From Scytonema sp. RU_4_4 (GTDB taxonomy: Bacteria > Cyanobacteriota > Cyanobacteriia > Cyanobacteriales > Nostocaceae), in the NCBI GenBank assembly GCA_012031965.1, contig JAAUSC010000005.1, forward strand, positions 1-64,000: a DNA stretch of 64,000 nucleotides, read 5' to 3'. Shown one piece after another: positions 113 to 15,528 of this stretch. A program made the position numbers and the translations under genes. Every line of letters begins with the position of its first letter. Position 1 is the stretch's first letter. The notes beneath the pieces are model-generated. The model was not told the DNA's origin. It saw nothing but the letters and a program-made list of their open reading frames with translations, and did not search any database.

Positions 113-2191
113 TTAAGGTGCGTCTCTTCTAATTTTTTCGATAATCTTCGCAATTTCTGTTTTTTGCTTTGAAATTTCATCTTTTAATTCTTGACAAGAT
201 TCATTGATTTTTAATAACAATTCAGGTCGTGTATCATTTAAAAAAACATAAATTAATGTTTCAATTATTTTTAAACTTTTAGCTTCAGCGAAAATTTCTG
301 AAATTATCTGTTCGATAAAACTCTTGGGAATTATTTTTTTAGGATCGAATGCGAATTCAGGAAAATCTTTTGTTCGAGGATATTTTAGTCTAGCTTCTAA
401 ATTTTTAAAATAAGATAATATTCGCTCGACTTCTTCTAAAATCGTTTCATAAAGGGTAGGCTTTAATGTCTTTATAAAATCTTCAAAACTATCCGTGACA
501 CTCTTTTTTATTTCTGATTTCTTAAATCTGAAGTTGATATCACTTATTGAATTTAAAAACTCGGCTTGTTTTTTACACCACTTATCAACTTCTTCGTGTA
601 GTAAAGATTCACATTTATCTGGCAACCTAACTGTAATAGCATACCAAAATCCTCGTAGTGTTTCGTTGTGTAATTTCTTATCGCCAAAACGCTTATCCTT
701 TGTTTTTGTGTCACAACAAACTCGAATTATTGGAATTTCTGATGAAACTTTCTCTTGTATATAGTTTTCTAATTCATCCAGAGTATCATCACTAGTTAGG
801 TAGTCTGCATGAGTTAACACAACTATTACACGATATTTATCTGTAATTAATTTTTTGATGATATTAAACTCGAAATCTTCTACCCTTTTAATGGCTGCAT
901 TAATACAATAGAATATTGTATGAAACCACTCACTAACTGGACGATTTGTTCCACGCTTTTTTAGTTCATCAGTAAGCATTTCATACCATTCTGTAGCATT
1001 GCCAACTTCTAAACCCTCAGAATCATAAATATTGATGGGGATACTTTCCCAAATAAAATTATATTTCTCAAACCCTTTCGTTACTGATTTGCCTACACCA
1101 GTTTTAGCAACATCCTTATCAAAAAGATAATTGACCAATGAACTCTTCCCAACTCCTGCTTTACCAAAAACCGCGATGTTGTAAACAATTTGTTCAAATT
1201 CTGAAGATTGCATAAATACCTCCTTTGTTTGTTCGATTCTACAATGATTTAACTCTTGAGAATACGATTCTATCTTGTGGTCTAATAAAATCTGAGATTT
1301 TCTGATTCCAAGAATACTTTTAGGAAGACGAAATAATCTTTCTTGTCTCAAACTATCTGAATATTCAACAATTTTTTCATTTAAATCAATAAATTTGAGA
1401 ATACCTACAGGCGGATAATCAAGATTTGGTATTTGTAAATTACGTAGCTCATCTGGAATTGGCAAACCCAAATTGTGTAACAGATTCAATGCATTATTGA
1501 AAAATTGAGTAGTAAATTCAATTTTTGATTTAGTCTGATAATCAGGTGGTAGATGAGGTACGATATCATTTTTATTCTCTATCCTGAAATGTGGCACTTT
1601 ACAATCTTCATACCTAGATGCAAACGCACTATCTCCTACACGTGGTGCGCCAAAAGTATAAACATCACTAATAGGAAAATTCTGTCTTTTTAATCTATAT
1701 GCAGCTAACGTGGCTAATGCACCACCTAAACTATGCCCTGTTAAACATATCTTGCGTGGTTTTAATTGTTCTATTACAGATTGAATTTCAGACAATATTT
1801 CTTCCATCAGTAATGCAAAACCAATATGAATTTCACATCCATAAATGTCAATGTTTTTTATTTTCTGCTCACCTATCCGAGAATTCGGACTTTCTTGATG
1901 AATATCTAATGCAGGAAGAAAATTACAGAACATACAAGCTAGCATATCTAAGAAAATATCAGTCTCTTGATTGATATTTTTTGATACAACTGTCCCTCGA
2001 AATGCAATAATTAATTCTTCGTTTAGAAATCCCGATAATGCAATTACAGGAGCAGAAACAGTCTTGTCACTAGGCTGAATTAATTTAATATTACGTAGTA
2101 GTAATTGGGCATCTTTACTTTGGTAAGGTTTAGATTCGTAAGTTGCAGAGCATATATTTGCAAGTATTTTGGCTTTTTCCAGGCTAAACAT
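113..2191 (-). CDS. Class-3 lipase / P-loop GTPase fusion protein
   Basis: 692 aa. Residues about 1-320 look like an alpha/beta-hydrolase class-3 lipase: oxyanion region 'AFRGT', nucleophile elbow GHSLGG (Ser154), 'NKNDIVP' with Asp209, and a late 'LDHKIESY' with the likely catalytic His305. Residues about 330-530 are an Era/dynamin-like GTPase: P-loop GKAGVGKSS (343-351), switch Thr near 371, DSEG (390-393) as G3, THAD (460-463) in place of N/TKxD as G4. The C-terminal ~160 residues are charged and probably helical. There is no signal peptide, so it should be cytosolic. Domain assignment is from motifs. A role in membrane-lipid attack gated by GTPase sensing (a defence or stress function) is inference, helped by the neighbouring toxin-antitoxin genes. 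The start ATG has no Shine-Dalgarno, whereas Met327 inside the frame has a strong one. Confidence 0.85.
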   Translation of the reverse strand: MFSLEKAKILANICSATYESKPYQSKDAQLLLRNIKLIQPSDKTVSAPVIALSGFLNEELIIAFRGTVVSKNINQETDIFLDMLACMFCNFLPALDIHQESPNSRIGEQKIKNIDIYGCEIHIGFALLMEEILSEIQSVIEQLKPRKICLTGHSLGGALATLAAYRLKRQNFPISDVYTFGAPRVGDSAFASRYEDCKVPHFRIENKNDIVPHLPPDYQTKSKIEFTTQFFNNALNLLHNLGLPIPDELRNLQIPNLDYPPVGILKFIDLNEKIVEYSDSLRQERLFRLPKSILGIRKSQILLDHKIESYSQELNHCRIEQTKEVFMQSSEFEQIVYNIAVFGKAGVGKSSLVNYLFDKDVAKTGVGKSVTKGFEKYNFIWESIPINIYDSEGLEVGNATEWYEMLTDELKKRGTNRPVSEWFHTIFYCINAAIKRVEDFEFNIIKKLITDKYRVIVVLTHADYLTSDDTLDELENYIQEKVSSEIPIIRVCCDTKTKDKRFGDKKLHNETLRGFWYAITVRLPDKCESLLHEEVDKWCKKQAEFLNSISDINFRFKKSEIKKSVTDSFEDFIKTLKPTLYETILEEVERILSYFKNLEARLKYPRTKDFPEFAFDPKKIIPKSFIEQIISEIFAEAKSLKIIETLIYVFLNDTRPELLLKINESCQELKDEISKQKTEIAKIIEKIRRDAP
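1211..1224 (-). promoter_or_regulatory. Internal Shine-Dalgarno and start codon (GTPase-only isoform)
   Basis: On the minus strand AGGAGG (1219-1224) lies five bases before an in-frame ATG (1211-1213, Met327 of the fusion). Spacing and sequence are near ideal, and the codon sits exactly between the lipase and GTPase domains. Translation from here would give a 366-residue GTPase without the lipase. It may also be a relic of two formerly separate genes. Confidence 0.55.
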
Positions 2192-2570: not shown

Positions 2571-2810
2571 TCAGAGATTTTTGATTTGACTATGCTGTTC
2601 GAGTCGCTCGGCAATCCATACTTTTATGATTGATTGTCGGGTTACACCAATTCGCTCTGCTTCCCTATCAAGTGCTTCAATTACCCATAAGGGGAAATCA
2701 ACATTTACCCGTCGCTGCTCGTAGCCAGGACGACGAACTGTAGAAAGGTCTAAGTAAGAGGTAATATCCTCTCCAGAGTCAAATTTTTCATCAAATTCTT
2801 CAGCCTTCAT
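2571..2810 (-). CDS. brnA: BrnA-like antitoxin (ribbon-helix-helix)
   Basis: 79 aa. The N-terminus (MKAEEFDEKFDSGEDITSY) is typical of BrnA-type antitoxins. Residues about 31-70 (RRVNVDFPLWVIEALDREA onward) fit a ribbon-helix-helix (CopG-like) DNA-binding fold in which the V-N-V-D strand pairs in the dimer. By family it neutralises the BrnT toxin and represses its own operon. It overlaps the end of brnT by 11 bp and is translated after it, the usual BrnT-BrnA order. GAGG lies nine bases before ATG 2810. The operator candidate is the palindrome upstream of brnT. Confidence 0.85.
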   Translation of the reverse strand: MKAEEFDEKFDSGEDITSYLDLSTVRRPGYEQRRVNVDFPLWVIEALDREAERIGVTRQSIIKVWIAERLEQHSQIKNL

Positions 2811-3075
2811 ATATTTTTACCTCTTCATCTCTTGCTCGCCTGACTGATATTATTCGCACCCGCTCTTCTCTGTATGTGATGACGGCAGACCAATGTTTCC
2901 CATTTATCAGTCCAATTACAAGAAACCTTGGTTCATCAATGTTACGAGCAGCGACTTCTACACGGTTTCTATCGCCCCACAGTTCTTGCGCCTCTATGAA
3001 ATCAATACCATGTTTTACTTTATTTGCAGCACTTTTTTGCTCGTCGAACTCAAATTCCATAGAGATTAGAGCCAT
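2800..3075 (-). CDS. brnT: BrnT family toxin (RelE-fold ribonuclease)
   Basis: 91 aa, the normal BrnT length. Recognisable features are 'FEFDEQKSAANKVKHGIDF' near the N-terminus, 'RFLVIGLINGKHWSAVIT' in the middle and the C-terminal 'RIISVRRARDEEVKIYE', where BrnT proteins carry the basic residues needed for RNA cleavage. Family knowledge: a RelE-like ribonuclease that slows growth when freed from BrnA. The start at ATG 3075 is preceded by AAGGA. ATG 3060 (MEFEFD) is an alternative closer to typical BrnT starts. It is the first gene of the two-gene operon. Confidence 0.88.
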   Translation of the reverse strand: MALISMEFEFDEQKSAANKVKHGIDFIEAQELWGDRNRVEVAARNIDEPRFLVIGLINGKHWSAVITYREERVRIISVRRARDEEVKIYEG

Positions 3076-3659: not shown

Positions 3660-3929
3660 ATGCCTTACCCTAAACTAAGTGACGAAGAAATTATCCGACG
3701 CGGTAAAGAATTATACGAGAAGCATATTCGTCCCCAAGTTGAGATAACAGAGAATATTGGTAAACTGATCTCCATCAATGTTGAAACGGGTGAATATGAG
3801 ATAGGCGACGATCTGCTAGTAACAAGCCGTCGTTTACAAGCTAAACAGGCTGATGCGGCAATTTGGGCAGAAAGGATTGGCTATGATGCTGTGTATGCTG
3901 TTGGTGGTTCATTAGTTAGGACTATATAG
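3660..3929 (+). CDS. Small conserved-type hypothetical protein, partner of retropepsin-like gene
   Basis: About 90 aa, charged and acidic, no membrane segment or known motif. 'LSDEEIIRRGKELYEKHIR' is probably helical. 'GKLISINVETGEYEIGDDLL' followed by 'AIWAERIGYDAVYAVGG' reads like the small partner proteins that precede clan-AA aspartic protease genes in cyanobacteria. ATG 3660 has GAGAGG eight bases upstream. GTG 3654 is possible but badly spaced. Its stop overlaps the next gene's start by one base (TAGTG), so the two are translationally coupled. Function unknown. An antitoxin-like or substrate role is only a guess. Confidence 0.7.
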   Translation: MPYPKLSDEEIIRRGKELYEKHIRPQVEITENIGKLISINVETGEYEIGDDLLVTSRRLQAKQADAAIWAERIGYDAVYAVGGSLVRTI

Positions 3930-4297
3930 TGATACACGGAATGGTGGTTGGACTTCAGGCACGAATGAGTGTTCTTGTTTGTTCAGAAGGAAATTCAGAT
4001 GTAGAAATCGAGTTCGTTGTCGATACAGGTTTTGAAGGTTTCCTCACCTTACCACCCAACATGGTTGCAGAACTTGGCTTGCCCTACATTGCTAAGATTC
4101 AAGCAAATCTTGCCGATAACTCCAAAGTGGCGACAAATGCTTATGCAATCAGAATTATATGGAACGGTGTTGAGCGTGATGTTGTAGTGCTGGCGATGGG
4201 TCGTCGTCCCCTGATCGGAACGGCACTACTTGAAGATTATCACCTCAGCATAGATTTCTGTGAAGGTGGTACTGTTTTGGTTGATGAAATCTTGTAA
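3929..4297 (+). CDS. Clan AA (retropepsin-like) aspartic protease
   Basis: 122 aa. 'IEFVVDTGFEGFLTLP' contains the D-T/S-G active-site triad (DTG) in the beta-hairpin setting typical of single-domain retropepsin-like proteases, which act as dimers. The later 'RRPLIGTALLEDYHLSIDF' matches the hydrophobic-hydrophobic-Gly block near the C-terminus of the fold. No signal peptide. GTG 3929 overlaps the upstream stop; ATG 3941 is an alternative. This protease plus small-partner arrangement is common in cyanobacterial accessory regions, but its substrate is unknown. Confidence 0.75.
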   Translation: MIHGMVVGLQARMSVLVCSEGNSDVEIEFVVDTGFEGFLTLPPNMVAELGLPYIAKIQANLADNSKVATNAYAIRIIWNGVERDVVVLAMGRRPLIGTALLEDYHLSIDFCEGGTVLVDEIL

Positions 4298-4737: not shown

Positions 4738-4950
4738 ATGACAACAAAAGACGCAATTTTTGAAGTGATTGAACAACTGCCAGAGCAGCAGCTGGAAGAC
4801 GTGTTGCGGTATGTTCAACAGCTGGCTTCCGGAAATCCCCAGAACCAGAATCCACCCACTTCCAGCAGCGACCCCCTGGCAAACTTTATCGGTGCAGTAT
4901 CTCATGGCTCCCTAGCTGTCAACTTAGACTCGGAACTGTATGGCGACTAA
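4738..4950 (+). CDS. Antitoxin-like small protein (DUF2281-like)
   Basis: 70 aa. 'AIFEVIEQLPEQQLEDVLRYVQQL' is the helical pattern of DUF2281/VapB-like antitoxins in cyanobacteria. The rest is polar and probably disordered, ending 'LAVNLDSELYGD', and would wrap the toxin. It overlaps the PIN-domain gene by 11 bp, the expected antitoxin-toxin arrangement. DNA binding by the N-terminus and autoregulation are family-based inference. Confidence 0.75.
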   Translation: MTTKDAIFEVIEQLPEQQLEDVLRYVQQLASGNPQNQNPPTSSSDPLANFIGAVSHGSLAVNLDSELYGD

Positions 4951-5368
4951 GCTTTTCATTGATACTTGGGGTTGGCTTACGCTCCACGACAAAAGTGAAC
5001 GCTATCATCATGAAGCTACAAAAGCTTACCAACGTGCCATTGCTCAAAATGGACAAATTTATACAACTGACTACGTTCTTGACGAAACATTCACTTTCTT
5101 TTTTCGACGACTTCCTGCACCAAGGGCTGATCAATCCATGAAAGCACTGCTGTCAGCCTTTTCGTCTGATAATTTTTATTTAATCCGCATTACTGAAGAA
5201 CGCTTTGCCCAAACCCAAGTACTCCGTTCTAAGTTTCTCGATAAGCCCCTGATTTCTTTTACTGACTTGACCTCAATGGTCGTTATGCAAGAATGTAACA
5301 TTACAACAATCCTCACCGAAGACGCTCACTTCACTCATGTGGGCATGGGCTTTCAGCTAGTTCCCTAA
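4940..5368 (+). CDS. PIN-domain toxin (VapC-like ribonuclease)
   Basis: 142 aa. PIN signature: 'KLFIDTWGW' with the first metal Asp, 'YVLDETFTFF' with D/E in the second acidic position, 'LISFTDLTSMVV' with the third acidic residue and the usual S/T-x-x-D block, and 'ILTEDAHF' with the last Asp. By family, a Mg-dependent endoribonuclease held inactive by the upstream antitoxin. The start ATG lies within the antitoxin gene. 'F-L-D' and 'F-T-D' spacing and length are normal for VapC-like proteins. Confidence 0.85.
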   Translation: MATKLFIDTWGWLTLHDKSERYHHEATKAYQRAIAQNGQIYTTDYVLDETFTFFFRRLPAPRADQSMKALLSAFSSDNFYLIRITEERFAQTQVLRSKFLDKPLISFTDLTSMVVMQECNITTILTEDAHFTHVGMGFQLVP

Positions 5369-5540: not shown

Positions 5541-6833
5541 ATGAAAGCGCTAGCCTCTTATTTCGCATCTATTGTCGGCACAGAAAATGCTGTCTGTTGG
5601 GAAGATGTTCCACTCAGTCAGCAAAAATCCATATTACAAGCTATTGCTTCCCCAAATCCTCCCGGTTGTATCGTCTATCCTCACACCACAGAACAGTTAG
5701 CGCAAGTCATAACAGAAGCATATCGCAACAAGTGGCGCGTTTTGCCATGCGGTAGTGGTAGTAAACTGAGTTGGGGTGGGTTAGTCAAAGATGTTGATGT
5801 CGTAGTCAGTACAGAACGCCTTAACCAACTCATTGAACACGCCGTTGGTGATTTAACAGTTACAGTCGCAGCGGGAATGAAGTTTTCCCATCTCCAAGAA
5901 ATGTTGGTAAACTCTCGGCAATTTCTTGCTCTTGACCCAATAACACAAGAGACAGCAACTATTGGTGGTATTGTTGCAACTGCTGATACAGGTTCCCTAC
6001 GGCAACGTTATGGTAGTGTACGGGATCAACTCTTGGGGATCACCTTTGTACGTGCTGATGGACAAATCGCCAAAGCTGGCGGGAGAGTGGTGAAAAATGT
6101 TGCTGGATACGACTTGATGAAATTATTTGCTGGGTCGTATGGCACATTGGGGGTAATTAGTCAAGTAACATTTCGTGTTTATCCTATGCACGAGATATCG
6201 GGAACGGTGGTGCTGACTGGTGACGCAAAGGCTGTCTCTCAAGCTGCTGATGTCCTCAGAGGTTCTGCGTTAACACCAACTCAAGCTGATTTGCTCTCAA
6301 CACAACTGGTGTCTAGCTTGGGGTTAGGACAAGGATTGGGATTAATTGCTCGCTTCCAAAGTATTGCTGAGAGTGTGAAGGAACAGTCAAACCGGCTTTT
6401 GGAAGTCGGGGAACAACTTGGGTTAAAAGGAACGATATATTCAGCGGCGGATGAAGCTGATTTATGGCGCATATTGCGAGAACAAATGCATTCTTCTGCC
6501 CATGAGTCTGTAATAAGTTGCAAAATAGGAGTGTTGCCTACTTCTGCTGTTGAAGTTTTGACTCAAGCAGATATGGGTTGGATTCACATCGCTAGTGGTT
6601 TGGGGGGGTTGCGGTTTGAGGGTGACAACAAGATTGATAAGGTGTTGGGGATGCGAAATCTTTGTCAAACCAATGGCGGTTTCCTCACTATTTTGGAAGC
6701 ACCAGTGAAGGTTAAGCAACAGTTAGATGTATGGGGCTACGCTGGTAATGCTGTGCAGTTGATGCGTCTGATAAAAGAGCAGTTTGATAAGGAATGTATT
6801 TTAAGTCCGGGTCGTTTTGTGGGTGGGATTTAG
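5541..6833 (+). CDS. glcE: Glycolate oxidase FAD-binding subunit GlcE
   Basis: 430 aa. FAD-binding PCMH-type domain: 'VLPCGSGSKLSWGG', 'LTVTVAAGMKFSHLQEML', 'ATIGGIVATADTG', 'GGRVVKNVAGYDLMKLFAGSYGTLGVI'. With GlcD and GlcF, GlcE oxidises glycolate to glyoxylate and feeds electrons to the quinone pool, the entry of photorespiratory carbon salvage. The N-terminus is somewhat longer than in enterobacterial GlcE. No clear Shine-Dalgarno. It lies 105 bp before glcF on the same strand, and no glcD is present nearby. Confidence 0.9.
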   Translation: MKALASYFASIVGTENAVCWEDVPLSQQKSILQAIASPNPPGCIVYPHTTEQLAQVITEAYRNKWRVLPCGSGSKLSWGGLVKDVDVVVSTERLNQLIEHAVGDLTVTVAAGMKFSHLQEMLVNSRQFLALDPITQETATIGGIVATADTGSLRQRYGSVRDQLLGITFVRADGQIAKAGGRVVKNVAGYDLMKLFAGSYGTLGVISQVTFRVYPMHEISGTVVLTGDAKAVSQAADVLRGSALTPTQADLLSTQLVSSLGLGQGLGLIARFQSIAESVKEQSNRLLEVGEQLGLKGTIYSAADEADLWRILREQMHSSAHESVISCKIGVLPTSAVEVLTQADMGWIHIASGLGGLRFEGDNKIDKVLGMRNLCQTNGGFLTILEAPVKVKQQLDVWGYAGNAVQLMRLIKEQFDKECILSPGRFVGGI

Positions 6834-6837
6834 GAAA

Positions 6838-6905
6838 CGAACCGCGTTAGCGTTTGCGCAGCGCCCCCTTAGGGGCTAGCGTGTCCGCAGGACATAGGCG
6901 CAAAG
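6838..6905. repeat. Inverted copy of the GC-rich dispersed repeat
   Basis: The glcE-glcF spacer carries GCGCAGCGCCCCCTTAGGGG, the reverse complement of the core of the 74-bp repeats at 3326 and 4504. The CCCCCTTAGGGG centre can form a hairpin between the two glc cistrons. Confidence 0.6.
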
Positions 6906-6938
6906 GACGCAAAGAAAGAGGGGAGAAGAAGAAATAAT

Positions 6939-8294
6939 ATGCAGGTTTCGGAAGGTTCTGAGAATAAGAAGGCTAGTTTGGAGAATTTGACTGGTTTTGA
7001 TGGAAATCATCCACCTGAGCCAAAGTTGATTGATACTTGTGTTCATTGTGGGTTTTGTCTTTCGACTTGTCCTAGTTATCGGGTGCTTGGTAAGGAGATG
7101 GATTCTCCACGAGGGCGCATCTATCTTATGGATGGGATTAATGAGGGTGAGATTCCTCTGAATGAGGTAACAGCACAACATTTTGATACTTGTTTGGGGT
7201 GTCTTGCTTGTGTGACGACTTGTCCTTCTGGTGTGCAATATGACAAGTTGATTTCTGCAACTCGTCACCAAGTTGAACGGAATTATCCGCGTAGTTTGCC
7301 AGATAAATTGTTTCGTCAACTGATATTTTCTTTGTTTCCTAATCCTGATGTTTTACGGGTTCTGCTGGTTCCATTGTTTTTTTATCAAAAGTTGGGTTTG
7401 CAGAAATTGGTGCGTGGAACTGGGTTGTTGAAGCGTTTGTTTCCTCGCTTGGCTGCAATGGAATCAATTTTGCCAGAGATCACTTTGAAATCTTTTCAAG
7501 ATAATTTGCCAGATATCATTCCAGCACAGGGTAAGAAACGTTACCGAGTTGGGGTGATTTTGGGATGTGTGCAAAGGCTATTTTTCTCTTCAATTAATGA
7601 AGCGACTGTGCGGGTTTTAACGGCGAATGGCTGTGAAGTTGTGATTCCCAAAACTCAAGGATGTTGTGCGGCGCTTCCGGAACATCAAGGACAAACAGAA
7701 CAAGCCAAAGCTTTAGCAAGGCAGATGATTGATAGTTTTGCAAATACTGGTGTAGATTTTGTGATTATCAATGCTGCTGGTTGCGGTCATACACTAAAAG
7801 AATATGGTCATATTTTAGAAGATGATCCACAATATCGGGAAAAAGCGAAAGCATTCGCGGGGAAGGTTAGAGATGCGCAAGAGTTTTTGGTTAGTGTTGG
7901 TTTAACAGCGAAATTATCACCTCTTGCAAATCAACCCTTGACTTTGGTTTATCAAGATGCATGTCATTTGTTACACGGGCAAAAGATTAGTGTACAACCG
8001 CGTCAGTTGTTGCGGCAAATTCCAGGGGTGAAGTTGCGCGAACCAGTTGATGCGGCTCTATGTTGTGGTAGTGCAGGGATTTACAATCTACTGCAACCAG
8101 AGGTGGCTGAGGAGTTGGGTAGACAAAAAGTGCAGAATTTGCTCAACACTGGTGCTGATTTAATGACATCTGCTAATCCGGGTTGTACTTTGCAAATTCG
8201 CAAGCATTTGCAATTGCAGGATAAGCAAATTTCCATCATGCACCCGATGGAGTTGTTGGATTATTCCATAAGGGGGGTGAAGTTGGAAGTTTAG
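6939..8294 (+). CDS. glcF: Glycolate oxidase iron-sulfur subunit GlcF
   Basis: 451 aa. Two ferredoxin-type 4Fe-4S motifs near the N-terminus: CVHCGFCLSTCPSYR and CLGCLACVTTCPSG. Two CCG domains follow, with 'GCCAALPEHQG', 'INAAGCGHTLKEYG', 'YQDACHLLHGQ' and 'CCGSAGIYNL'. It passes electrons from the GlcD/E flavins to the membrane. A purine-rich Shine-Dalgarno (GGGGAGAAG) lies before ATG 6939. Cotranscription with glcE is likely, although the 105-bp spacer contains a repeat that can fold. Confidence 0.9.
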   Translation: MQVSEGSENKKASLENLTGFDGNHPPEPKLIDTCVHCGFCLSTCPSYRVLGKEMDSPRGRIYLMDGINEGEIPLNEVTAQHFDTCLGCLACVTTCPSGVQYDKLISATRHQVERNYPRSLPDKLFRQLIFSLFPNPDVLRVLLVPLFFYQKLGLQKLVRGTGLLKRLFPRLAAMESILPEITLKSFQDNLPDIIPAQGKKRYRVGVILGCVQRLFFSSINEATVRVLTANGCEVVIPKTQGCCAALPEHQGQTEQAKALARQMIDSFANTGVDFVIINAAGCGHTLKEYGHILEDDPQYREKAKAFAGKVRDAQEFLVSVGLTAKLSPLANQPLTLVYQDACHLLHGQKISVQPRQLLRQIPGVKLREPVDAALCCGSAGIYNLLQPEVAEELGRQKVQNLLNTGADLMTSANPGCTLQIRKHLQLQDKQISIMHPMELLDYSIRGVKLEV

Positions 8295-8299
8295 AAAAA

Positions 8300-8322
8300 G
8301 CTACAGGCTTCTCGCCTGTAGC
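8300..8322 (-). terminator. Hairpin terminator between convergent genes
   Basis: GCTACAGGC, five-base loop, GCCTGTAGC: a perfect nine-base-pair stem. Read on the minus strand it is followed by TTTTTC, so it should end transcripts of the dienelactone hydrolase gene. On the plus strand it lies just past glcF but lacks a U-run. Confidence 0.7.
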
Positions 8323-8471
8323 TATTGCAAAGAGCTATACCTGCGCGGGTTTAAGCCGCTAATAGCACCCTGTCATCTGGTTATAGGTTTCACGTGATCA
8401 AGCATATGCAGTTGCAGGGAATATCAATTCGTGTGAAGCTACATATTTTAGAATCCCCTGACTTCTAATTA

Positions 8472-9305
8472 TTAAACGCCATGTTGCTTAAACCATGCTT
8501 GGAGGCGTTTCCAGCCTTCCTTGGCTTCTTTTTCCCGGTAGGAAGGGCGGTAATCGGCAAAAAAGGCATGGGGTGCATCAGGGTAGACGATGATTTCAGA
8601 TTTTCTGCTGCTGGACTTGAGGCGATCGCGCATTTGCTCCACTGTATTCAGGGGAATGCCTGTATCTTTACCGCCGTAGAGTCCAAGAATGGGAACTTTC
8701 AGCGTAGAGGCGATATCTACGGGATGTTTAGGTGTCAGTTCGGTAGTATCACCTACTAGTCGCCCGTACCAAGCCACGCCTGCTTTGATTTTGGGATTAT
8801 GTGCAGCGTACAGCCAGGTCATGCGACCGCCCCAGCAAAAGCCTGTAATCCCCAATTTATCAGCATTTCCCTTGCCAGACTTGACCGCCCAGTTTACCGT
8901 AGCATCAAGGTCAGATAGCACTTGGGCATCTGGTACTTTAGCTACAATTGGGCGAATTTCGTCAATACTGCTTAATTTGGAGACATCGCCCTGACGCACG
9001 AATAATTCCGGTGCGATCGCCAGATATCCCAACTTAGCAAAGCGACGGGTAATATCCTGAATATGCTCGTGGACGCCAAAGATTTCTTGGAGCACCAGCA
9101 CAATCGGGAAATTCTTGCCAGTAGCAGGCTCCGCTCTGTAAGCCGGAATTTCACCATCTTGGACGGGAATTTTCACCGCACCCGCAACCAATCCTTTGGT
9201 ATTGGTGGTGATGACTTTAGCAGAAATAGGTTGCACTGCCAAAGCAAAGCCTGTAGCAAGGGTAGCAGTTGCGATAAAGTTGCGGCGCGTTATTTCTTTT
9301 ATCAT
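8472..9305 (-). CDS. Exported dienelactone hydrolase family protein
   Basis: 277 aa. The N-terminus '[18 protein letters not shown]...ISA' is a twin-arginine (Tat) type signal, so the folded enzyme is probably periplasmic. The mature part is an alpha/beta hydrolase of the dienelactone hydrolase family: '[20 protein letters not shown]', nucleophile Cys in 'GFCWGG', 'LYGGKD' for the Asp, and '[12 protein letters not shown]' for the His. Family members hydrolyse lactones or esters; the substrate here is unknown. Single gene convergent with glcF, with a hairpin between them. Confidence 0.85.
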
Positions 9306-9479
9306 CTTTAATACCTTGAGCTATCCAGGTTCAATCTTATTTTTCCAGGGTAAGCTTTTACGCTTAGTTGTTTACATAGTGCAGGCGTTGACCTTACTTA
9401 TTAGTGATCCAACCCGGAATAATAGTTTGTTGCCTTGTATTTAAGAGATACGGTCGGGCTATATTTTTAGCAAAATATA

Positions 9480-10784
9480 ATGAAACTAGATTTAACAAGA
9501 TTTTATCAAGCATGTGACCCAAGTAAAACCCTAGTCGTAGGAAATGCCGAGGATCGGCAATACTATATTGATTTTTCCTCAGTACGCGGTGGCAAGATTA
9601 TTGGGGAATTAGAGCGAACTATCACACGCCTCTCACCTGATGAGCCAACTTGCCAGTTGTTTACAGGACATGTTGGTTGTGGTAAGTCTACAGAGTTACT
9701 GCGGCTGACAGCAGAGCTAGAGCAGCAGGGATTTCATGTTGTTTATTTTAACTCCAGCCATGATATGGACATGGCGGATGTTGATATTACAGATATTTTA
9801 TTGGCGATCGCCCGTGAGGTGAGTCAAAGCCTGGAAGCTATTAAAATTAGGCTGAAACCAAGATACTTTGTTGATTTGTTTCGTGAAATTGCAGATATTT
9901 TACAAACGCCACCAATTGACATCACCGAAGTACAGTTGTCTGCAGGTATTGCCACAATTACAGCGAAAACCAAAGATAGTCCCAGAGTTCGTAGTCAGTT
10001 AAGGTACTTTCTTGAGCCACATACAAATAGACTTTTAGAAGCAATTAACAAGGAAGTACTTGAACCAGCCATAGAAAAACTAAAATGGCAAGGCAAAAAA
10101 GGACTGGTGGTGATTGTTGATAATCTCGAAAAAATGCATAACTCTGTCAAGCCGTCGGGATCCTCTCAGGCAGAATATTTATTTGTTGATCGGGGTGAAC
10201 AGTTAAAACAACTGAATTGCCACTTAGTTTATACAATTCCTCTAGTTCTCATTTTTTCAAATGTTTTAGGACGACTGACGGATCGATTTGGCGTAGATCC
10301 CAAAGTTTTGCCTATGGTTCCCGTGCAGCTACGAGATAATTCTGAATTCCTACAAGGAATCACACTGCTGCAACAGATGGTTATGGTAAGAGCTTTTCCT
10401 GGTGTCAGTTGGGAAGGGAGTCGTCATTTGATTACGCAAGTTTTTGATACTCCTGAAACTTTAGAGCAATTGTGCCGAGTCAGTGGTGGTCATGTGCGAA
10501 GCTTACTGATGATACTCCAGGCTTGTCTCCAGAGGACAGATGCTCTACCTATCTCGCGTGACTGCTTGGGAAGTGTGATTAAGCAACGCTGTAATACGCT
10601 CAAGAATACAATTGCTGATGATGAGTGGGAGCTATTGCATCAAGTGGTACAAAAGAAAAGCTTGAAAGGAGAAGAAAGATACCAATCTCTGATACACAGT
10701 ATGTTTGTCTTTGAATATCGATATCAGGATGAGTTGTGGTTTGATATCAATCCGATTTTGGCACAAGCAAAAGAGTTGCAGTGA
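9480..10784 (+). CDS. P-loop ATPase, first gene of nSTAND-WD40 operon
   Basis: 434 aa. Walker A GHVGCGKST at residues 63-71 and a Walker B-like hydrophobic strand LVVIVDNLEK ending in Asp214. The region between has a helical insert (about 115-200). The C-terminal third ('GGHVRSLLMILQACLQRT') resembles the helical lid of AAA/KAP-type NTPases. Soluble, no signal. Function unknown. Its stop overlaps the next gene's ATG (TGATG), showing tight coupling with the giant TPR/NTPase/WD40 protein, so the pair probably works together as a sensor or regulator. Related ATPases beside STAND proteins occur in cyanobacteria, but I know of no assigned role. Confidence 0.8.
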   Translation: MKLDLTRFYQACDPSKTLVVGNAEDRQYYIDFSSVRGGKIIGELERTITRLSPDEPTCQLFTGHVGCGKSTELLRLTAELEQQGFHVVYFNSSHDMDMADVDITDILLAIAREVSQSLEAIKIRLKPRYFVDLFREIADILQTPPIDITEVQLSAGIATITAKTKDSPRVRSQLRYFLEPHTNRLLEAINKEVLEPAIEKLKWQGKKGLVVIVDNLEKMHNSVKPSGSSQAEYLFVDRGEQLKQLNCHLVYTIPLVLIFSNVLGRLTDRFGVDPKVLPMVPVQLRDNSEFLQGITLLQQMVMVRAFPGVSWEGSRHLITQVFDTPETLEQLCRVSGGHVRSLLMILQACLQRTDALPISRDCLGSVIKQRCNTLKNTIADDEWELLHQVVQKKSLKGEERYQSLIHSMFVFEYRYQDELWFDINPILAQAKELQ

Positions 10785-13700
10785 TGACGAACTCACATCA
10801 AACGGAAAATTTCGCCGCCGATAACGAAAGTTCGTTGCAGGCGCTGACGCGGGCGATCGCCCGTTCTCAAGGACAATTTTCACTCATTTTGCTACGTTGC
10901 AATTACGCAGTTTTACGGAAACGCATGGTGCAGCGTCTGCGAGAGCTAACGAATGTCCACATTCAAGAACTAGTTCTACCTGAGTCTGTCAAGACGCTCT
11001 ACACCACTATCGAAGCAAAACTCTGTTCACAACAGCCACCAGCATTAATGGTGTTTGGTCTAGATTCGGTAGATGACATTGATACTTTGCTAACTTCTAC
11101 CAATCAAGTTAGGGAGGAATTTCGCAAAAATTTTCCGTTCCCGATATTGGTGTGGATTAATGATAAGGTATTACAAAAGCTGATTCGGCTAACGCCAGAT
11201 TTGGAGAGTTGGGCAACAACAATTGAATTTGAACTCACTACCGAAGAGTTACTCAAATTCTTACAGCAAACTGCAAATGAGGTATTTTCCAAAGTTTTAG
11301 AGGTGGGTGCAGACACATTTCTGGACAATGCAGCCCTCAACTTAGGGATTGGTTCACCTTGTAGATTTGAACTTGAGTCAGCCCGCAAAGATTTACAACG
11401 TCGTGGCGTAAATTTGCAGCCAGAGCTCGAAGCCAGTCTGGAGTTTGTTCTGGGACGAGATGCTTGCAACTCAATGGAACAATCTCTAGAACATTATGAA
11501 CGGAGTTTAGCGTTTTGGGAAAAAAGCAATAACGCAGAGTGGCGAGGGTGTTTACTGTTTTGCCTTGGTTTATGGTGGCGCACATACGCTGTGTTACATC
11601 GCTCAAAGCAGGAGCAAGCTTTTCGTACAGCAAAAAGTTACTATCAGCAATGTATTCAAGTCTTCCAGCAAGCTAACCGCCCCGATCTAGAAGCTAAATT
11701 CATCAATGCTTTAGGAGAAGTTTTACAAAAGTTACACGAGTGGGATGAGTTAGACTCTGTTGCGAAAAGAGCACAGGTTCTGCATCAAAGCTATTTTAAT
11801 CCAATTAGACTTGCTTATAGTTATGGGTTACTAGCCGAGGTTGCACTGGCTGTGAAAACTTGGACTCAAGCACAGGAATACACTGAAAAAGCACGACAAA
11901 TTCTATACAGTGCTGGAGAGCCAGCCCTGAATTATTGTTACCTGGAGCAGAACACGAGGTTAGCTCAAGCTTGGCAATCTCATACAGGTTGGTACTTATT
12001 ATTACTGGCTCAGGCGCAACAGCATCTTGGGCAAGTTTCAGAAGCGATTGAAAAATTGGAAACTGCGAGAGCAGAAAGTCAGCCTAAGCATAATCCACCC
12101 ATTTACATTCGTATTTTGGAGGAGTTGCGATCGCTTTACTTTACCCAAGGTCAATATCCCGAAGCCTTTGAGATTAAACAAGAAAAACGTCAAATTGAAC
12201 ACCAGTATGGCTTCCGAGCCTTCATCGGTGCAGATCCACTGCAGCTAAAGCAACAGGTCATTAACTCAGCATTGCTACCATCTGCTCAGCTAACGACCTT
12301 TAACCAAGAAATGATCGCTTCTGCTCGTCGCCAGCAAGAAGTAGATTACTTGATAAAAGAAAGAATTTGTCGTCCCGATCATAAATTGATCGTGATCCAC
12401 GGTCAATCAGGGGTGGGCAAGAGTTCAATGGTGAATGAACTGGTTCTAGCGCTAGAACATCCCATCTGCCAACATAAGACTTTGCCCGTGGTGCAGAAAG
12501 GTTACACGAATTGGGTACAGGAATTAGGTCATGCTTTAGTCGATGCTTTAGAGAAAAAAGGTATTCACTTGCCGACAACTCCAGATTCCGTGGAGAACAT
12601 TATTGCACAATTGCGAAATCATAAAAATCATTATTTACTAACAGTTTTAATTTTCGATCAATTTGAAGAGTTTTTCTTTGTCTGTACTGAACCAACTCAA
12701 AGACGACCATTGTATGAATTTTTGCATACTTGCTTGAAAATTCCCTCTGTAAAAATCATTCTATTATTACGGGAAGATTATTTGCACTATTTGTTGGAGT
12801 GGGAACGCGTCACAATTTAGATATCATCAATAATGATATTCTGAGCAAAAATATTCGCTACTCTTTAAAAGAGTTTTCACCAGAAGATGCCAAATTAAAT
12901 ATCCAGAGTTTAACAGCGCAATCGCATTTTCACTTTGAGCCTGCGCTGATTGATGCTCTAGTGCATGATTTAGCCGGAGAGTTAGGGGTAGTGCGTCCAA
13001 TTGAGTTACAGATTGTAGGAGCACAACTCGAAGAGGACAACATCATCACCCTAAAACAATATCAACAACTTGGTTCTAATCCGAAAGAAAAACTGGTTGA
13101 ACAATATTTAGAACAAGTCATTAGAGATTGTGGTCCTAAGAACAAAAGTATTGCTCAACTCATTTTGTTTCTGCTAACAGATGAAATCGGTACCCGCCCC
13201 CTCAAGACTCGTGCTGAACTCATAGAGGAAATAGAAACAGCAGGTTTACAATTAGAAGCTAATCAACTGGATTTAGTTTTAGAAATTTTAGTCGGTGCAG
13301 GATTTGTCTTTCGGGTACGAGAAACACCCGCTGATCGTTATCAACTGGTTCACGATTATCTGCTGGCGTTTATCCGTCAACAACAGGAACCTGAACTATT
13401 AGAAGAACTGAAGCTAACTAAAGAAAAACTCAAGCAGTCACTGCTGCAAGAAAAGCAGGAACGCAAACGGGCAGAAATTGCTGAAATCGAGGCACTGAGT
13501 TCCCTCTCTCAAGCTTTGCTTCTATCACACGATGAGCTTGGGGCATTAATCGCCGCTGTCAAGGCTGGTAGAAAATTACAGGAAATGCTACCATTGGTAG
13601 ATGCTAAGCTTAAGCATAAAACTGTAGCTAATTTACAGCAGGCAGTCTTTGGAATTCAAGAGTGCAATCGTTTTCAAGGGCATAGCGCCAGAATTTTGAG

Positions 13701-15528
13701 CGTGAGTTTCAGTCCAGATGGTCAACTCATTGCTTCTGGCAGTGATGACAGCACAATTAAACTTTGGAAGTACGATGGTACTCTAGTTAACACCCTCCAA
13801 GGGCATAGCCTTGGTGTGAATAGTGTCAGTTTCAGTCCGGATGGACAGATGCTGGCTTCAGCAAGTACTGACAAAACTGTGAAACTTTGGCGGCTTGACG
13901 GTACAGAAGTGCGAACTTTCCAAGGGCATAACGATTGGGTTTTAGGCGTGAGTTTTAGTTCAGATGGTCAGATCATAGCCTCCGCTAGCAATGACAGGAC
14001 AGTCAAACTTTGGAGTCAGAACGGCACAGAACTGCAAACCTTACTCGGACATGGTAACTGGGTTAGGAGTGTGAGTTTTAGTCCAGATGGTCAGATGATT
14101 GCCTCAGCAAGTGACGATAGTACAATCAAACTTTGGAATCTTAATGGCACAGAACTGAAAACCTTAGTTGGGCATAGCGATAAGATCAGGAGTATAAGTT
14201 TTAGTCCAGATGGTCAGATCATTGCTTCCGCCAGTGATGACAGGACAGTCAAACTCTGGAGTCAAGACGGTACAGAAGTGCAAACCTTACTTGGACATTG
14301 TGCTAGGGTCAGAAGCGTAAGTTTTAGTTCAGATGGTCAGATGATTGCTTCCGCCAGTGATGACAGCACCGTCATACTCTGGAGTCTTGATGGAACTTTA
14401 CTCAAAACCTTGAAAGGACATAGAGCTAGAAGCAGGAGTGTCAGTTTTAGTCCAGATGGTCAGATGCTTGCTTCGGCTAGTGATGACAGTACAGTCAAAC
14501 TCTGGAGCCTTGATGGTATAAAAAAACCAACCCATCAAGGACATCGTGCTAGGGTCAGTTGCGTAAGTTTCAGCCCCAACGGGCAGATGCTTGCTTCTGC
14601 TAGTGAGGACAAAACAGTAAAACTCTGGGATCTCGAAGGTAAAGAACTGCAAACCTTACTCGGACATACCGACTGGATTAGAAGCACGAGTTTTAGCCCT
14701 AATGGGTATATAATTGCCTCAGCCAGTGAGGATAAAACCGTGAAACTCTGGAGTCTTGATGGAACTTTACTCAAAACTTTGAAAGGACATGACGATAGAG
14801 TCAGGAGCGTGTGTTTCAGCCCAGATGGACAGATGATCGTCTCGGCAAGTGATGATAAAACCGTGAGACTTTGGAGACTCGCTCGCGTATCTCCACAGGA
14901 GTTTTGCACAGAACTACGTACTTTTCAAGGACATTGCAATTGGATTTGGGGTGTGAGTTTTAGTCCAGATGGTCAGATAATCGCCTCAGCCAGTGATGAC
15001 AACACAATCAAACTGTGGAACCTGGAAGGGATGGAACTGTGTACTTTCCGGGGACATCACAACTGGGTTCGGAGCGTGAGTTTCAGCCCAGATGGTAAAA
15101 TGATAGCCTCAGCCAGTGATGATAAGACAATCAAACTCTGGAGTATTGTTCATAGTAGAGAACTGCAAACCTTTCAAGGACATAGAGATGCTGTTAACAG
15201 CGTAAGTTTCAGTCCAGATGGTAAAATGGTAGCCTCTGCCAGTGATGACAAGACAGTCAAACTTTGGAACTTAGAAGGCAAAGAGCTACAAACCTTTCAT
15301 GGACATAATCACTGTGTCAACAGTGTGAGTTTCAGTCCAGATGGTAAAACGATTGCTTCTGCCAGTGATGGCAAAACTGTGAGGATCTGGAAACTCAACC
15401 ATTTAGATTCCCCTATGGATTTAGATGCTCTTCTAGTACGCGGCTGTAAGTGGCTATATGCCTATCTGACAACTAACCCCAACGTTAGTGAGAGCGCTTG
15501 TCATCTCTGCAATGATATCAATAACTAA
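10784..15528 (+). CDS. Giant TPR - STAND NTPase - WD40 (nSTAND) protein, split by a one-base frameshift
   Basis: About 1,581 aa if the frame is restored. Order: residues ~20-160 a second NTPase-like region without a proper P-loop ('LILLRCNYAVLRKRM', 'ALMVFGLDSVDDID'); ~235-480 TPR-like helices; STAND-type NTPase with Walker A GQSGVGKSS (540-548), Walker B 'LIFDQFEEFF' (~620) and 'ILLLRED'; a helical region; then from about base 13672 fourteen WD40 repeats ('GH..SVSFSPDG..IASAS.D.TVKLW'), enough for two seven-bladed propellers. One frame stops at TAG 12818-12820 while the continuing homologous frame reads '...RHNLDIINND'. Adding one A to the AA in GTCACAATTTAG gives 'ERVTNLDIINND', so a single base is missing near 12813-12816. 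It may be a real mutation or a sequencing error. Role inferred: ligand-triggered signalling or defence. Confidence 0.82.

What the first reader, a model, noticed from the sequence alone, without database searches (positions are those of the whole stretch)
113..2191. Class-3 lipase fused to a P-loop GTPase in one protein
Both halves look catalytically complete: Ser154/Asp209/His305 and the GTPase motifs at 343-351, 390-393 and 460-463. A GTPase switch coupled to a lipase would fit a sensor that attacks membranes when triggered, and the gene sits beside three toxin- or protease-type units. I do not know of a described system with this fusion.
Basis: partly seen in the sequence, partly recalled or inferred. 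Interest (0 to 1): 0.75.

Follow-up and report, generated by a model that had tools for sequence, protein, structure and literature searches.

The report
Portable lipase–GTPase effector gene
A cyanobacterial gene joins a fat-splitting enzyme to a molecular switch, and close relatives of it have been spliced into the business end of predicted bacterial immune systems, which suggests a cell-killing or anti-viral weapon that can be passed around and plugged in.

Summary
The fusion is real: window 113-2191 (-) encodes 692 aa, a class 3 lipase (about residues 1-320) followed by a septin/GIMAP-type GTPase and a helical tail. Six lipase-GTPase genes in five genomes of one family keep Ser/Asp/His and the P-loop; the G4 motif is degenerate (THAD here).

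Five of the six, the window's included, stand alone; the BrnT, protease and PIN genes near the window copy are beside none of the other four. The sixth (G793) lies in an iSTAND-MoxR-vWA 'ternary' conflict operon, in the slot that elsewhere holds CHAT/caspase, FGE or receiver domains, and seems captured together with leader sequence. In G733 the same slot holds the GTPase without lipase, where an operon of the window's own genome, 92-94% identical around it, has DUF1257.

The module is AT-rich, horizontally spread (dS below groEL/asnS) and changes fast as protein (omega 0.58-1.24 against 0.04-0.26).

Best reading: a portable, probably membrane-lipid-attacking effector with the GTPase as switch. 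Known kind (predicted ternary systems, GIMAP-type GTPase effectors), new variant (lipase fusion, free form). No activity is shown.

The parts
113..2191 (-). lipase-GTPase fusion gene, 692 aa, ATG start, stop included; free-standing, last gene before the contig start
   Evidence: ORF; Pfam; six genes with both halves, this one included; window = G000:C314:1-64000
1232..2191 (-). class 3 lipase domain, about residues 1-320
   Evidence: Lipase_3 E 4.1e-28; model and Foldseek hits to fungal lipases and feruloyl esterase
1730..1732 (-). Ser154 codon (nucleophile, GHSLG)
   Evidence: invariant in 30 lipase sequences and in 6 of 6 lipase-GTPase genes
1565..1567 (-). Asp209 codon (triad)
1277..1279 (-). 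His305 codon (triad, DHxxxxY)
692..1189 (-). GTPase domain of the septin/GIMAP/Toc clade, about residues 335-500
   Evidence: MMR_HSR1, Septin, AIG1 above cut-off; low-confidence model matches septin, Toc34, GIMAP
1139..1165 (-). P-loop GKAGVGKSS, residues 343-351
   Evidence: GxxGxGKS in 6 of 6 lipase-GTPases and in the G733 GTPase
1013..1024 (-). G3 motif DSEG, residues 390-393
   Evidence: DSxG in 6 of 6; EFWG in the G733 GTPase-only copy
803..814 (-). degenerate G4 motif THAD, residues 460-463
116..691 (-). C-terminal region, about residues 501-692, helical in the low-confidence models; least conserved part
   Evidence: identity 43-47% where the lipase has 71-74% (window against G026, G729, L034)

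Best explanation
A portable effector module of bacterial conflict (immunity/suicide) systems. The N-terminal class 3 lipase is the weapon, most likely attacking the cell's own membrane lipids; the C-terminal septin/GIMAP-like GTPase with its helical tail is the switch or oligomerisation part that gates the lipase. In some Nostoc-related genomes the module (or its GTPase alone) is plugged in behind an about 250-residue N-terminal domain encoded next to vWA in iSTAND-MoxR-vWA ternary operons, so that iSTAND/Death-like-domain sensing would trigger it. In the window organism and four other genes it stands alone, either sensing by itself or acting in trans with a ternary system of the same genome. 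Shown by sequence: both halves, conserved catalytic residues, presence in the effector slot (full module once, GTPase alone once), signs of horizontal spread, fast protein change. Inferred: enzymatic activity, GTP gating, membrane target, trigger, and death or dormancy as outcome.
For: G793:C397 operon (L190), one strand: calcineurin phosphoesterase with a bDLD1 hit just under its cut-off (24.4 against 25 bits), bDLD1+iSTAND, MoxR-position AAA_5 ATPase, vWA_CoxE, a 1036-aa protein with N-domain + lipase + GTPase, bDLD1+PNP; PADLOC matches the PNP and calcineurin proteins to its 'Effector' profiles (E 6e-19, 2e-13). G733 (L192): EAD8+trypsin, EAD8+iSTAND, AAA_5, vWA, Uma2, N-domain+GTPase. The N-domain occurs in 105 of 211 family genomes; in 20 matches that I opened, vWA lies directly before it or is fused to it in 20, MoxR in 18, iSTAND in 17, and what follows it varies: CHAT 4, receiver 3 (one with a caspase domain), FGE 2, DUF1257 2, seven others once each, two without a family there. 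L192 matches the own-genome operon L243 at 92% DNA identity from 6604 to 9510, then the GTPase half of the free genes at 75-83% from 9511 to the gene's end, then L243 again at 94% from 10701. The G793 fusion keeps the free gene's Met, and the 24 nt before it resemble the leader of the clade-A free genes (0, 0, 3 and 10 of 2000 shuffles as good). G026/G729: 73 nonsynonymous and 15 synonymous changes, omega 1.24; six control genes pooled 0.113, Fisher p 1.4e-19.
Against: Five of the six lipase-GTPase genes, the window's included, have no ternary-system gene nearby (for all five and for the far end of the window's contig). The full-module slot fusion rests on one 10.8-kb contig of one genome, the GTPase-only one on another genome. 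The ternary systems are described as predictions in the papers that I saw. Omega is not significantly above 1 (p 0.28) and could be relaxed constraint; between the window and the free G793 copy it is 0.38 with dS 1.28, so recent transfer is not indicated between the two clades. The G4 motif is degenerate. PADLOC gives the module itself only weak partial hits (LeoBC E 8e-6; mad8, LeoBC). No inhibitor gene is recognised beside the free copies.
Confidence: 0.62

Rival explanations
1. A stand-alone anti-phage protein of its own: the GTPase senses a phage process or membrane disturbance directly (as recalled for bacterial dynamins and Eleos) and releases the lipase; the two ternary-operon copies are secondary captures.
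For: Five of six lipase-GTPases are free-standing; the G793 fusion seems to have captured a free gene with part of its leader; lone GTPases of the same subfamily sit on small plasmids and, by my reading of ORFs, beside type I R-M genes; weak LeoBC similarity.
Against: No conserved neighbour and no test of sensing; its use in the effector slot suggests that it can obey an external sensor.
Confidence: 0.22
2. A housekeeping or lipid-turnover enzyme: a GTP-regulated lipase that remodels membrane or storage lipids in these cyanobacteria, without an immune role.
For: Class 3 lipases are common in cyanobacteria and on viral contigs; in G026/G729 the gene lies among genes that look like housekeeping genes.
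Against: Rare and patchy: both halves in 6 genes of 5 genomes among 217 of the family and in 2 of 386 genomes sampled across the phylum; low GC in every copy, dS below groEL/asnS between genera, high omega; slot copies in conflict operons.
Confidence: 0.11
3. A secreted or injected lipase toxin for killing competitors or hosts.
For: A 2012 survey notes OTU-type effectors of intracellular bacteria accompanied by domains such as GIMAP GTPase and lipase (PMC3482391, passages).
Against: By eye no signal peptide; no secretion or immunity gene recognised beside it; slot copies are part of an intracellular system. The one hydrophobic stretch (residues 79-97) lies inside the lipase.
Confidence: 0.05

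Closest known systems
iSTAND-MoxR-vWA ternary conflict systems (PMC7159879, 2020; bDLD paper PMC8195603, 2021)
   Same: One lipase-GTPase and one GTPase-only relative are encoded in such operons, in the variable position after vWA; [quoted passage not shown]
   Different: No word beginning with 'lipase' occurs in either paper (counts; PMC8195603 again). Here a lipase is fused before the GTPase, and the module also exists as a free-standing gene, as in the window.
Multi-domain effectors of intracellular bacteria with GIMAP GTPase and lipase domains (PMC3482391, 2012)
   Same: Passages seen name GIMAP GTPase and lipase among the domains that accompany OTU peptidases in such proteins.
   Different: Host-directed effectors with other domains and repeats; whether the two domains lie in one protein was not clear from the passages. 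Not compared by sequence.
Eleos (LeoA/LeoBC dynamin-like GTPases)
   Same: GTPase of a membrane-associated kind; weak profile similarity to LeoBC and LeoA.
   Different: No second GTPase relative near the free copies; lipase fused instead.
EDS1/PAD4 plant immunity proteins
   Same: Class 3 lipase fold at the N-terminus of an immune protein; Foldseek hits.
   Different: The second half is a GTPase, not the EP domain (recalled).
GIMAP/AIG1, septin and Toc34 GTPases
   Same: Pfam AIG1 and Septin above cut-off; best fold matches of the low-confidence model.
   Different: Degenerate G4 motif; fused to a lipase.

Membership tests
Class 3 lipase | Lipase_3 profile over cut-off | tested here: met
   98.5 bits against 22
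Class 3 lipase | Ser/Asp/His triad | tested here: met
   invariant in 30 of 30 aligned sequences and in 6 of 6 lipase-GTPases
Class 3 lipase | Lipase fold | tested here: met
   17 of 32 ten-residue blocks of residues 1-320 have pLDDT 85 or more; Foldseek E 6.6e-10 to a feruloyl esterase
Class 3 lipase | Lipid hydrolysis | not testable with these tools
   needs an assay
Septin/GIMAP-clade GTPase | P-loop and DxxG | tested here: met
   6 of 6 lipase-GTPases; the G733 copy has EFWG
Septin/GIMAP-clade GTPase | G4 [NT]KxD guanine motif | tested here: inconclusive
   THAD, TKAE, TRAE, TNSD
Septin/GIMAP-clade GTPase | Fold | tested here: inconclusive
   model mean pLDDT 50.6; best hits septin, Toc34, GIMAP
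iSTAND-MoxR-vWA ternary system | iSTAND, MoxR and vWA genes beside the effector: window copy and the other four free copies | tested here: not met
   no hit in the window, in contig bases 60000-77910 or in L052, L189, L034, L191; own-genome iSTAND matches are on C190, C343, C202
iSTAND-MoxR-vWA ternary system | Same, for G793:C397 (lipase-GTPase) and G733 (GTPase only) | tested here: met
   iSTAND and VWA_CoxE above cut-off, AAA_5 above cut-off but bpMoxR below it; same gene order in most of the 20 other loci opened
Eleos | LeoA plus LeoBC gene pair | tested here: not met
   partial LeoBC hit E 8e-6 only; no second relative of the GTPase near the free copies; the window's downstream side is cut by the contig end
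Known PADLOC defence protein | strong full-length profile match of the module | tested here: not met

The most novel reading that the evidence does not exclude
The gene is a one-protein innate immune executioner: a GTP-gated membrane lipase that senses infection through its own fast-changing GTPase tail, works without partners, moves between genomes, and is recruited as a ready-made warhead by Death-like-domain-bearing ternary systems.
Probability: 0.33. Interest if true: 0.8.

Novelty: new variant of a known kind. Interest (0 to 1): 0.62.

Why it matters
The predicted ternary systems of multicellular bacteria combine Death-like, caspase-like and STAND-like parts, but their outputs are mostly guessed. 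A lipase-GTPase that exists both as a free gene and as the plugged-in output of such a system gives a small, testable protein with clear active-site mutants, and the G733/G000 operon pair is a natural effector-swap experiment. If confirmed it would add lipid attack under a GIMAP/septin-type switch to the outputs of bacterial immunity.

Tried and rejected
Neighbour-toxin idea: BrnA/BrnT, the clan AA protease and the PIN gene of the window have no homologue in the 18-19.5 kb held around the other four free copies; rejected as partners. Phage or plasmid origin: of 51 plasmid and 11 phage records with a match none covers 80% of the protein; scans of viral contigs with the whole alignment, the GTPase alignment and the plasmid GTPase confirmed nothing; of 75 complete lipase ORFs from 80 viral loci none exceeds 420 aa. 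Six long lipase ORFs of other cyanobacteria (in L053-L057) show no GTPase in Pfam. With the GTPase half alone, 16 of 386 phylum genomes matched at 1e-20; apart from G000 and G026 all lie in open frames of 379-483 aa, too short for this fusion. G741 (673 aa frame) and G773 (537 aa) were not opened. DUF697 GTPases are a wider family; lone GTPases upstream of iSTAND operons in G328 and G760 were seen, operon membership not proved. The GTPase half could not be modelled well, so nothing is said about an interface. Omega is from my own Nei-Gojobori script; AT bias can lower dS, but whole-gene identity of synonymous codons in the clade-A pairs (0.82-0.98) is far from that expected at saturation (about 0.5). 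The 20 N-domain loci were chosen by me, mostly from the top of the list, two of them from the window's own genome; the other matches were not opened, except two more of the own genome (L197, L199).

Full report
WHAT IS THERE. ORF 113-2191 on the minus strand, 692 aa, holds a class 3 lipase (Lipase_3 62-217, E 4.1e-28) and a P-loop GTPase that scores above cut-off with MMR_HSR1, Septin and AIG1. In the full-length model 17 of the 32 ten-residue blocks of residues 1-320 have pLDDT 85 or more and the best matches are feruloyl esterase and fungal lipases. The GTPase half is poorly modelled (mean pLDDT 50.6), yet its best fold matches are septin, Toc34 and GIMAP2; I treat this as weak support. The gene is the last of its contig (window = G000:C314:1-64000): 112 bases remain downstream, so the downstream neighbour is unknown.

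IS THE FUSION CONSERVED? Yes, but it is rare. With an alignment of three full-length copies, 217 genomes of the family gave six genes with both halves in five genomes: window, G026, G729, G749 (the same contig as the Nostoc indistinguendum MAG record L034, 71,399 bases in both) and two in G793. Samples drawn evenly, which overlap with each other, gave the whole protein in two genomes, G000 and G026, of 388 in the order and of 386 in the phylum. All six have the Ser/Asp/His triad, GxxGxGKS and DSxG; G4 varies. Identity to the window is 71-74% (lipase), 59-67% (GTPase domain) and 43-47% (tail) for clade A (G026, G729, L034), and 47-54%, 50-52% and 32-34% for the two G793 genes.

THE DECISIVE CONTEXT. 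Two relatives are not alone. In G793:C397 (L190) the lipase-GTPase forms residues 255-902 of a 1036-aa protein. Its gene follows, on one strand, a calcineurin phosphoesterase with a bDLD1 hit just under cut-off, bDLD1+iSTAND (E 1.4e-22), an AAA_5 ATPase in the MoxR position (the bpMoxR model itself is under cut-off) and VWA_CoxE, and is followed by bDLD1+PNP. In G733 (L192) the same N-terminal domain is fused to the GTPase without lipase, after EAD8+trypsin, EAD8+iSTAND, AAA_5, vWA and Uma2. These match the iSTAND ternary systems of PMC7159879 (section 20 read; other passages), which describe effector domains at the C-terminal end of the vWA component, FGS being commonest, with caspase-like, TIR and a GTPase of the AIG/GIMAP-septin clade. 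PADLOC profiles called 'Effector' match the PNP and calcineurin proteins of L190.

THE SLOT. The N-terminal domain of L190/L192 (alignment A6) has no Pfam match of its own (one weak TPR hit inside it in L255) and occurs in 105 of 211 family genomes. I opened 20 of the listed matches: vWA lies directly before it or is fused to it in 20 of 20 (in L243, L244, L251 and L254 with a small gene between or a partial vWA), MoxR is found in 18 and iSTAND in 17. L243 misses both at a contig end; L261 lacks iSTAND and L262 both: in these two, where vWA and N-domain are one protein, unmatched ORFs lie at the expected places. Behind the N-domain come CHAT (4 of 20), receiver domains (3, one with a caspase domain), FGE-sulfatase (2), DUF1257 (2), and once each TPR, AAA_35, DUF3102, Cas_APE2256, KAP, CHASE2 and bDLD1; two show no family there. 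The lipase-GTPase of L190 and the GTPase of L192 thus occupy a position used by known effector-type domains.

HOW THE MODULE GOT THERE. Two traces. (a) Swap: L192 is 92.2% identical in DNA to the own-genome operon L243 (G000:C352, vWA-212 aa ORF-N-domain+DUF1257) from 6604 to 9510; from 9511 to 10597 it matches the GTPase half of the free clade-A genes (75-83%) to the end of the gene; from 10701 to 11168 it matches L243 again at 94.2%. G026 has the DUF1257 form too, so I infer, without proof, that the GTPase is the newcomer. (b) Capture: in L190 the module begins with the free gene's Met, and the 24 bases before that Met resemble the leader of the clade-A free genes (0 of 2000 shuffles as good for L034 and G729, 3 for the window, 10 for G026, but 1665 for G793's own free copy). 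The first 40 residues of the G793 slot copy are nearer to clade A, and from about residue 81 it is nearer to the free copy of its own genome: probably a recombinant.

THE FREE COPIES. Around the five free copies (the whole window and the far end of its contig, and 18-19.5 kb for the other four) no relative of iSTAND, MoxR, vWA, the N-domain, bDLD1, EAD8, a second such GTPase, or of the window's BrnA, BrnT, protease and PIN genes was found, except those of the window itself (phmmer, E <= 1e-3).

EVOLUTION. All seven copies have 31-35% GC against 38-48% around them or in the fused N-domain. Between genera the module's dS is 0.27-0.37 within clade A, while groEL and asnS give 0.64-1.31, which suggests horizontal transfer. 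Between the two clades dS is 1.28 and omega 0.38 (window against the free G793 copy). Protein change is fast within the clades: omega 0.58-0.82 between genera against 0.04-0.07 for groEL and asnS; in the same-genus pair G026/G729 73 nonsynonymous and 15 synonymous changes (1.24) against a pooled 0.113 for six control genes (single genes 0.05-0.26). It is not significantly above 1 (p 0.28), so diversifying selection is suggested, not shown. Frames and catalytic residues stay intact. The names groEL, groES, asnS, trmA and rsbW are my reading of the sequences; only the response regulator was checked by Pfam.

MECHANISM, WITH STEPS MARKED. Shown by sequence: lipase plus GTPase, conserved active sites, presence as an exchangeable C-terminal module of the ternary slot, signs of mobility. 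Inferred: GTP binding or dimerisation (recalled for GIMAP, septin and Toc GTPases) changes the state of the lipase; the lipase attacks own membrane lipids; the cell dies or stops. For the free copies the trigger is open: own sensing by the variable tail, or a ternary system in trans. The window genome does have iSTAND operons elsewhere.

LITERATURE. Searches for a lipase-GTPase fusion or its use in defence listed no title or abstract start that describes it; only openly licensed PMC papers are held, so absence is not proved. PMC3482391 (2012; passages) does name GIMAP GTPase and lipase among domains accompanying OTU peptidases in proteins of intracellular bacteria. Seen: PMC7159879 (passages and section 20); PMC8195603, PMC3482391 and PMC12839542 (passages); others as search listings only.

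VERDICT. A real, conserved, rare and apparently mobile lipase-GTPase fusion, best read as a portable effector of predicted bacterial conflict systems; a new variant of a known kind.

Noticed in passing
L190:3602-4342 (-), L192:8697-9479 (+) and relatives: An about 250-residue domain without a Pfam family of its own, in 105 of 211 genomes of the family, next to or fused with vWA in 20 of 20 opened loci: an unnamed docking domain of the ternary systems.
   Followed up: partly
window 1901-1957 (-), residues 79-97: Hydrophobic stretch IFLDMLACMFCNFLPALDI inside the lipase (Kyte-Doolittle 1.73; 1.96 in G026, 1.91 in L034; the free G793 copy's best is 1.34 elsewhere), above the guide value of about 1.6 that I recall for membrane spans; low pLDDT. 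Possibly a membrane-touching lid.
   Followed up: no
window 10781-12820 and 12730-15528 (+): An nSTAND1 ORF and a WD40-repeat ORF overlap in different frames; they may be one broken nSTAND-WD40 gene. An ATPase gene (9480-10784) precedes them.
   Followed up: no
window 2571-3075 (-), 3929-4297 (+), 4940-5368 (+): BrnT toxin with a likely antitoxin ORF, a clan AA aspartic protease and a PIN protein: ordinary small units, not conserved beside the lipase-GTPase.
   Followed up: yes
L254:7735-9654 (+): N-domain protein with a Cas_APE2256 domain (CRISPR-associated) in the ternary effector slot.
   Followed up: no
L051:3-1636 (+): Faecal contig filed as phage: a GTPase of the same subfamily after a small hydrophobic protein and upstream of ORFs that look like type I R-M genes (by eye).
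   Followed up: no
L045:166-1966, L046:3887-5687: Tandem septin/GIMAP-like GTPase genes, one 43% identical to the window GTPase, on small Acinetobacter and larger Klebsiella plasmids.
   Followed up: no
L263:12867-14003 (-), L264:5142-6290 (+): Lone GTPases in same-strand gene arrays upstream of iSTAND operons in G328 and G760.
   Followed up: partly
L065:4851-7437 (-): Two adjacent AIG1-type GTPase genes in the window's own genome, C9.
   Followed up: no
L198:1920-5068 (-): Own genome C343: iSTAND and MoxR read as one ORF and only the first part of vWA matches; possibly a decayed system.
   Followed up: no
L189:8611-9176 (-): Beside the G729 copy, two small overlapping ORFs that look like a ParD/ParE-type pair (by eye).
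   Followed up: no
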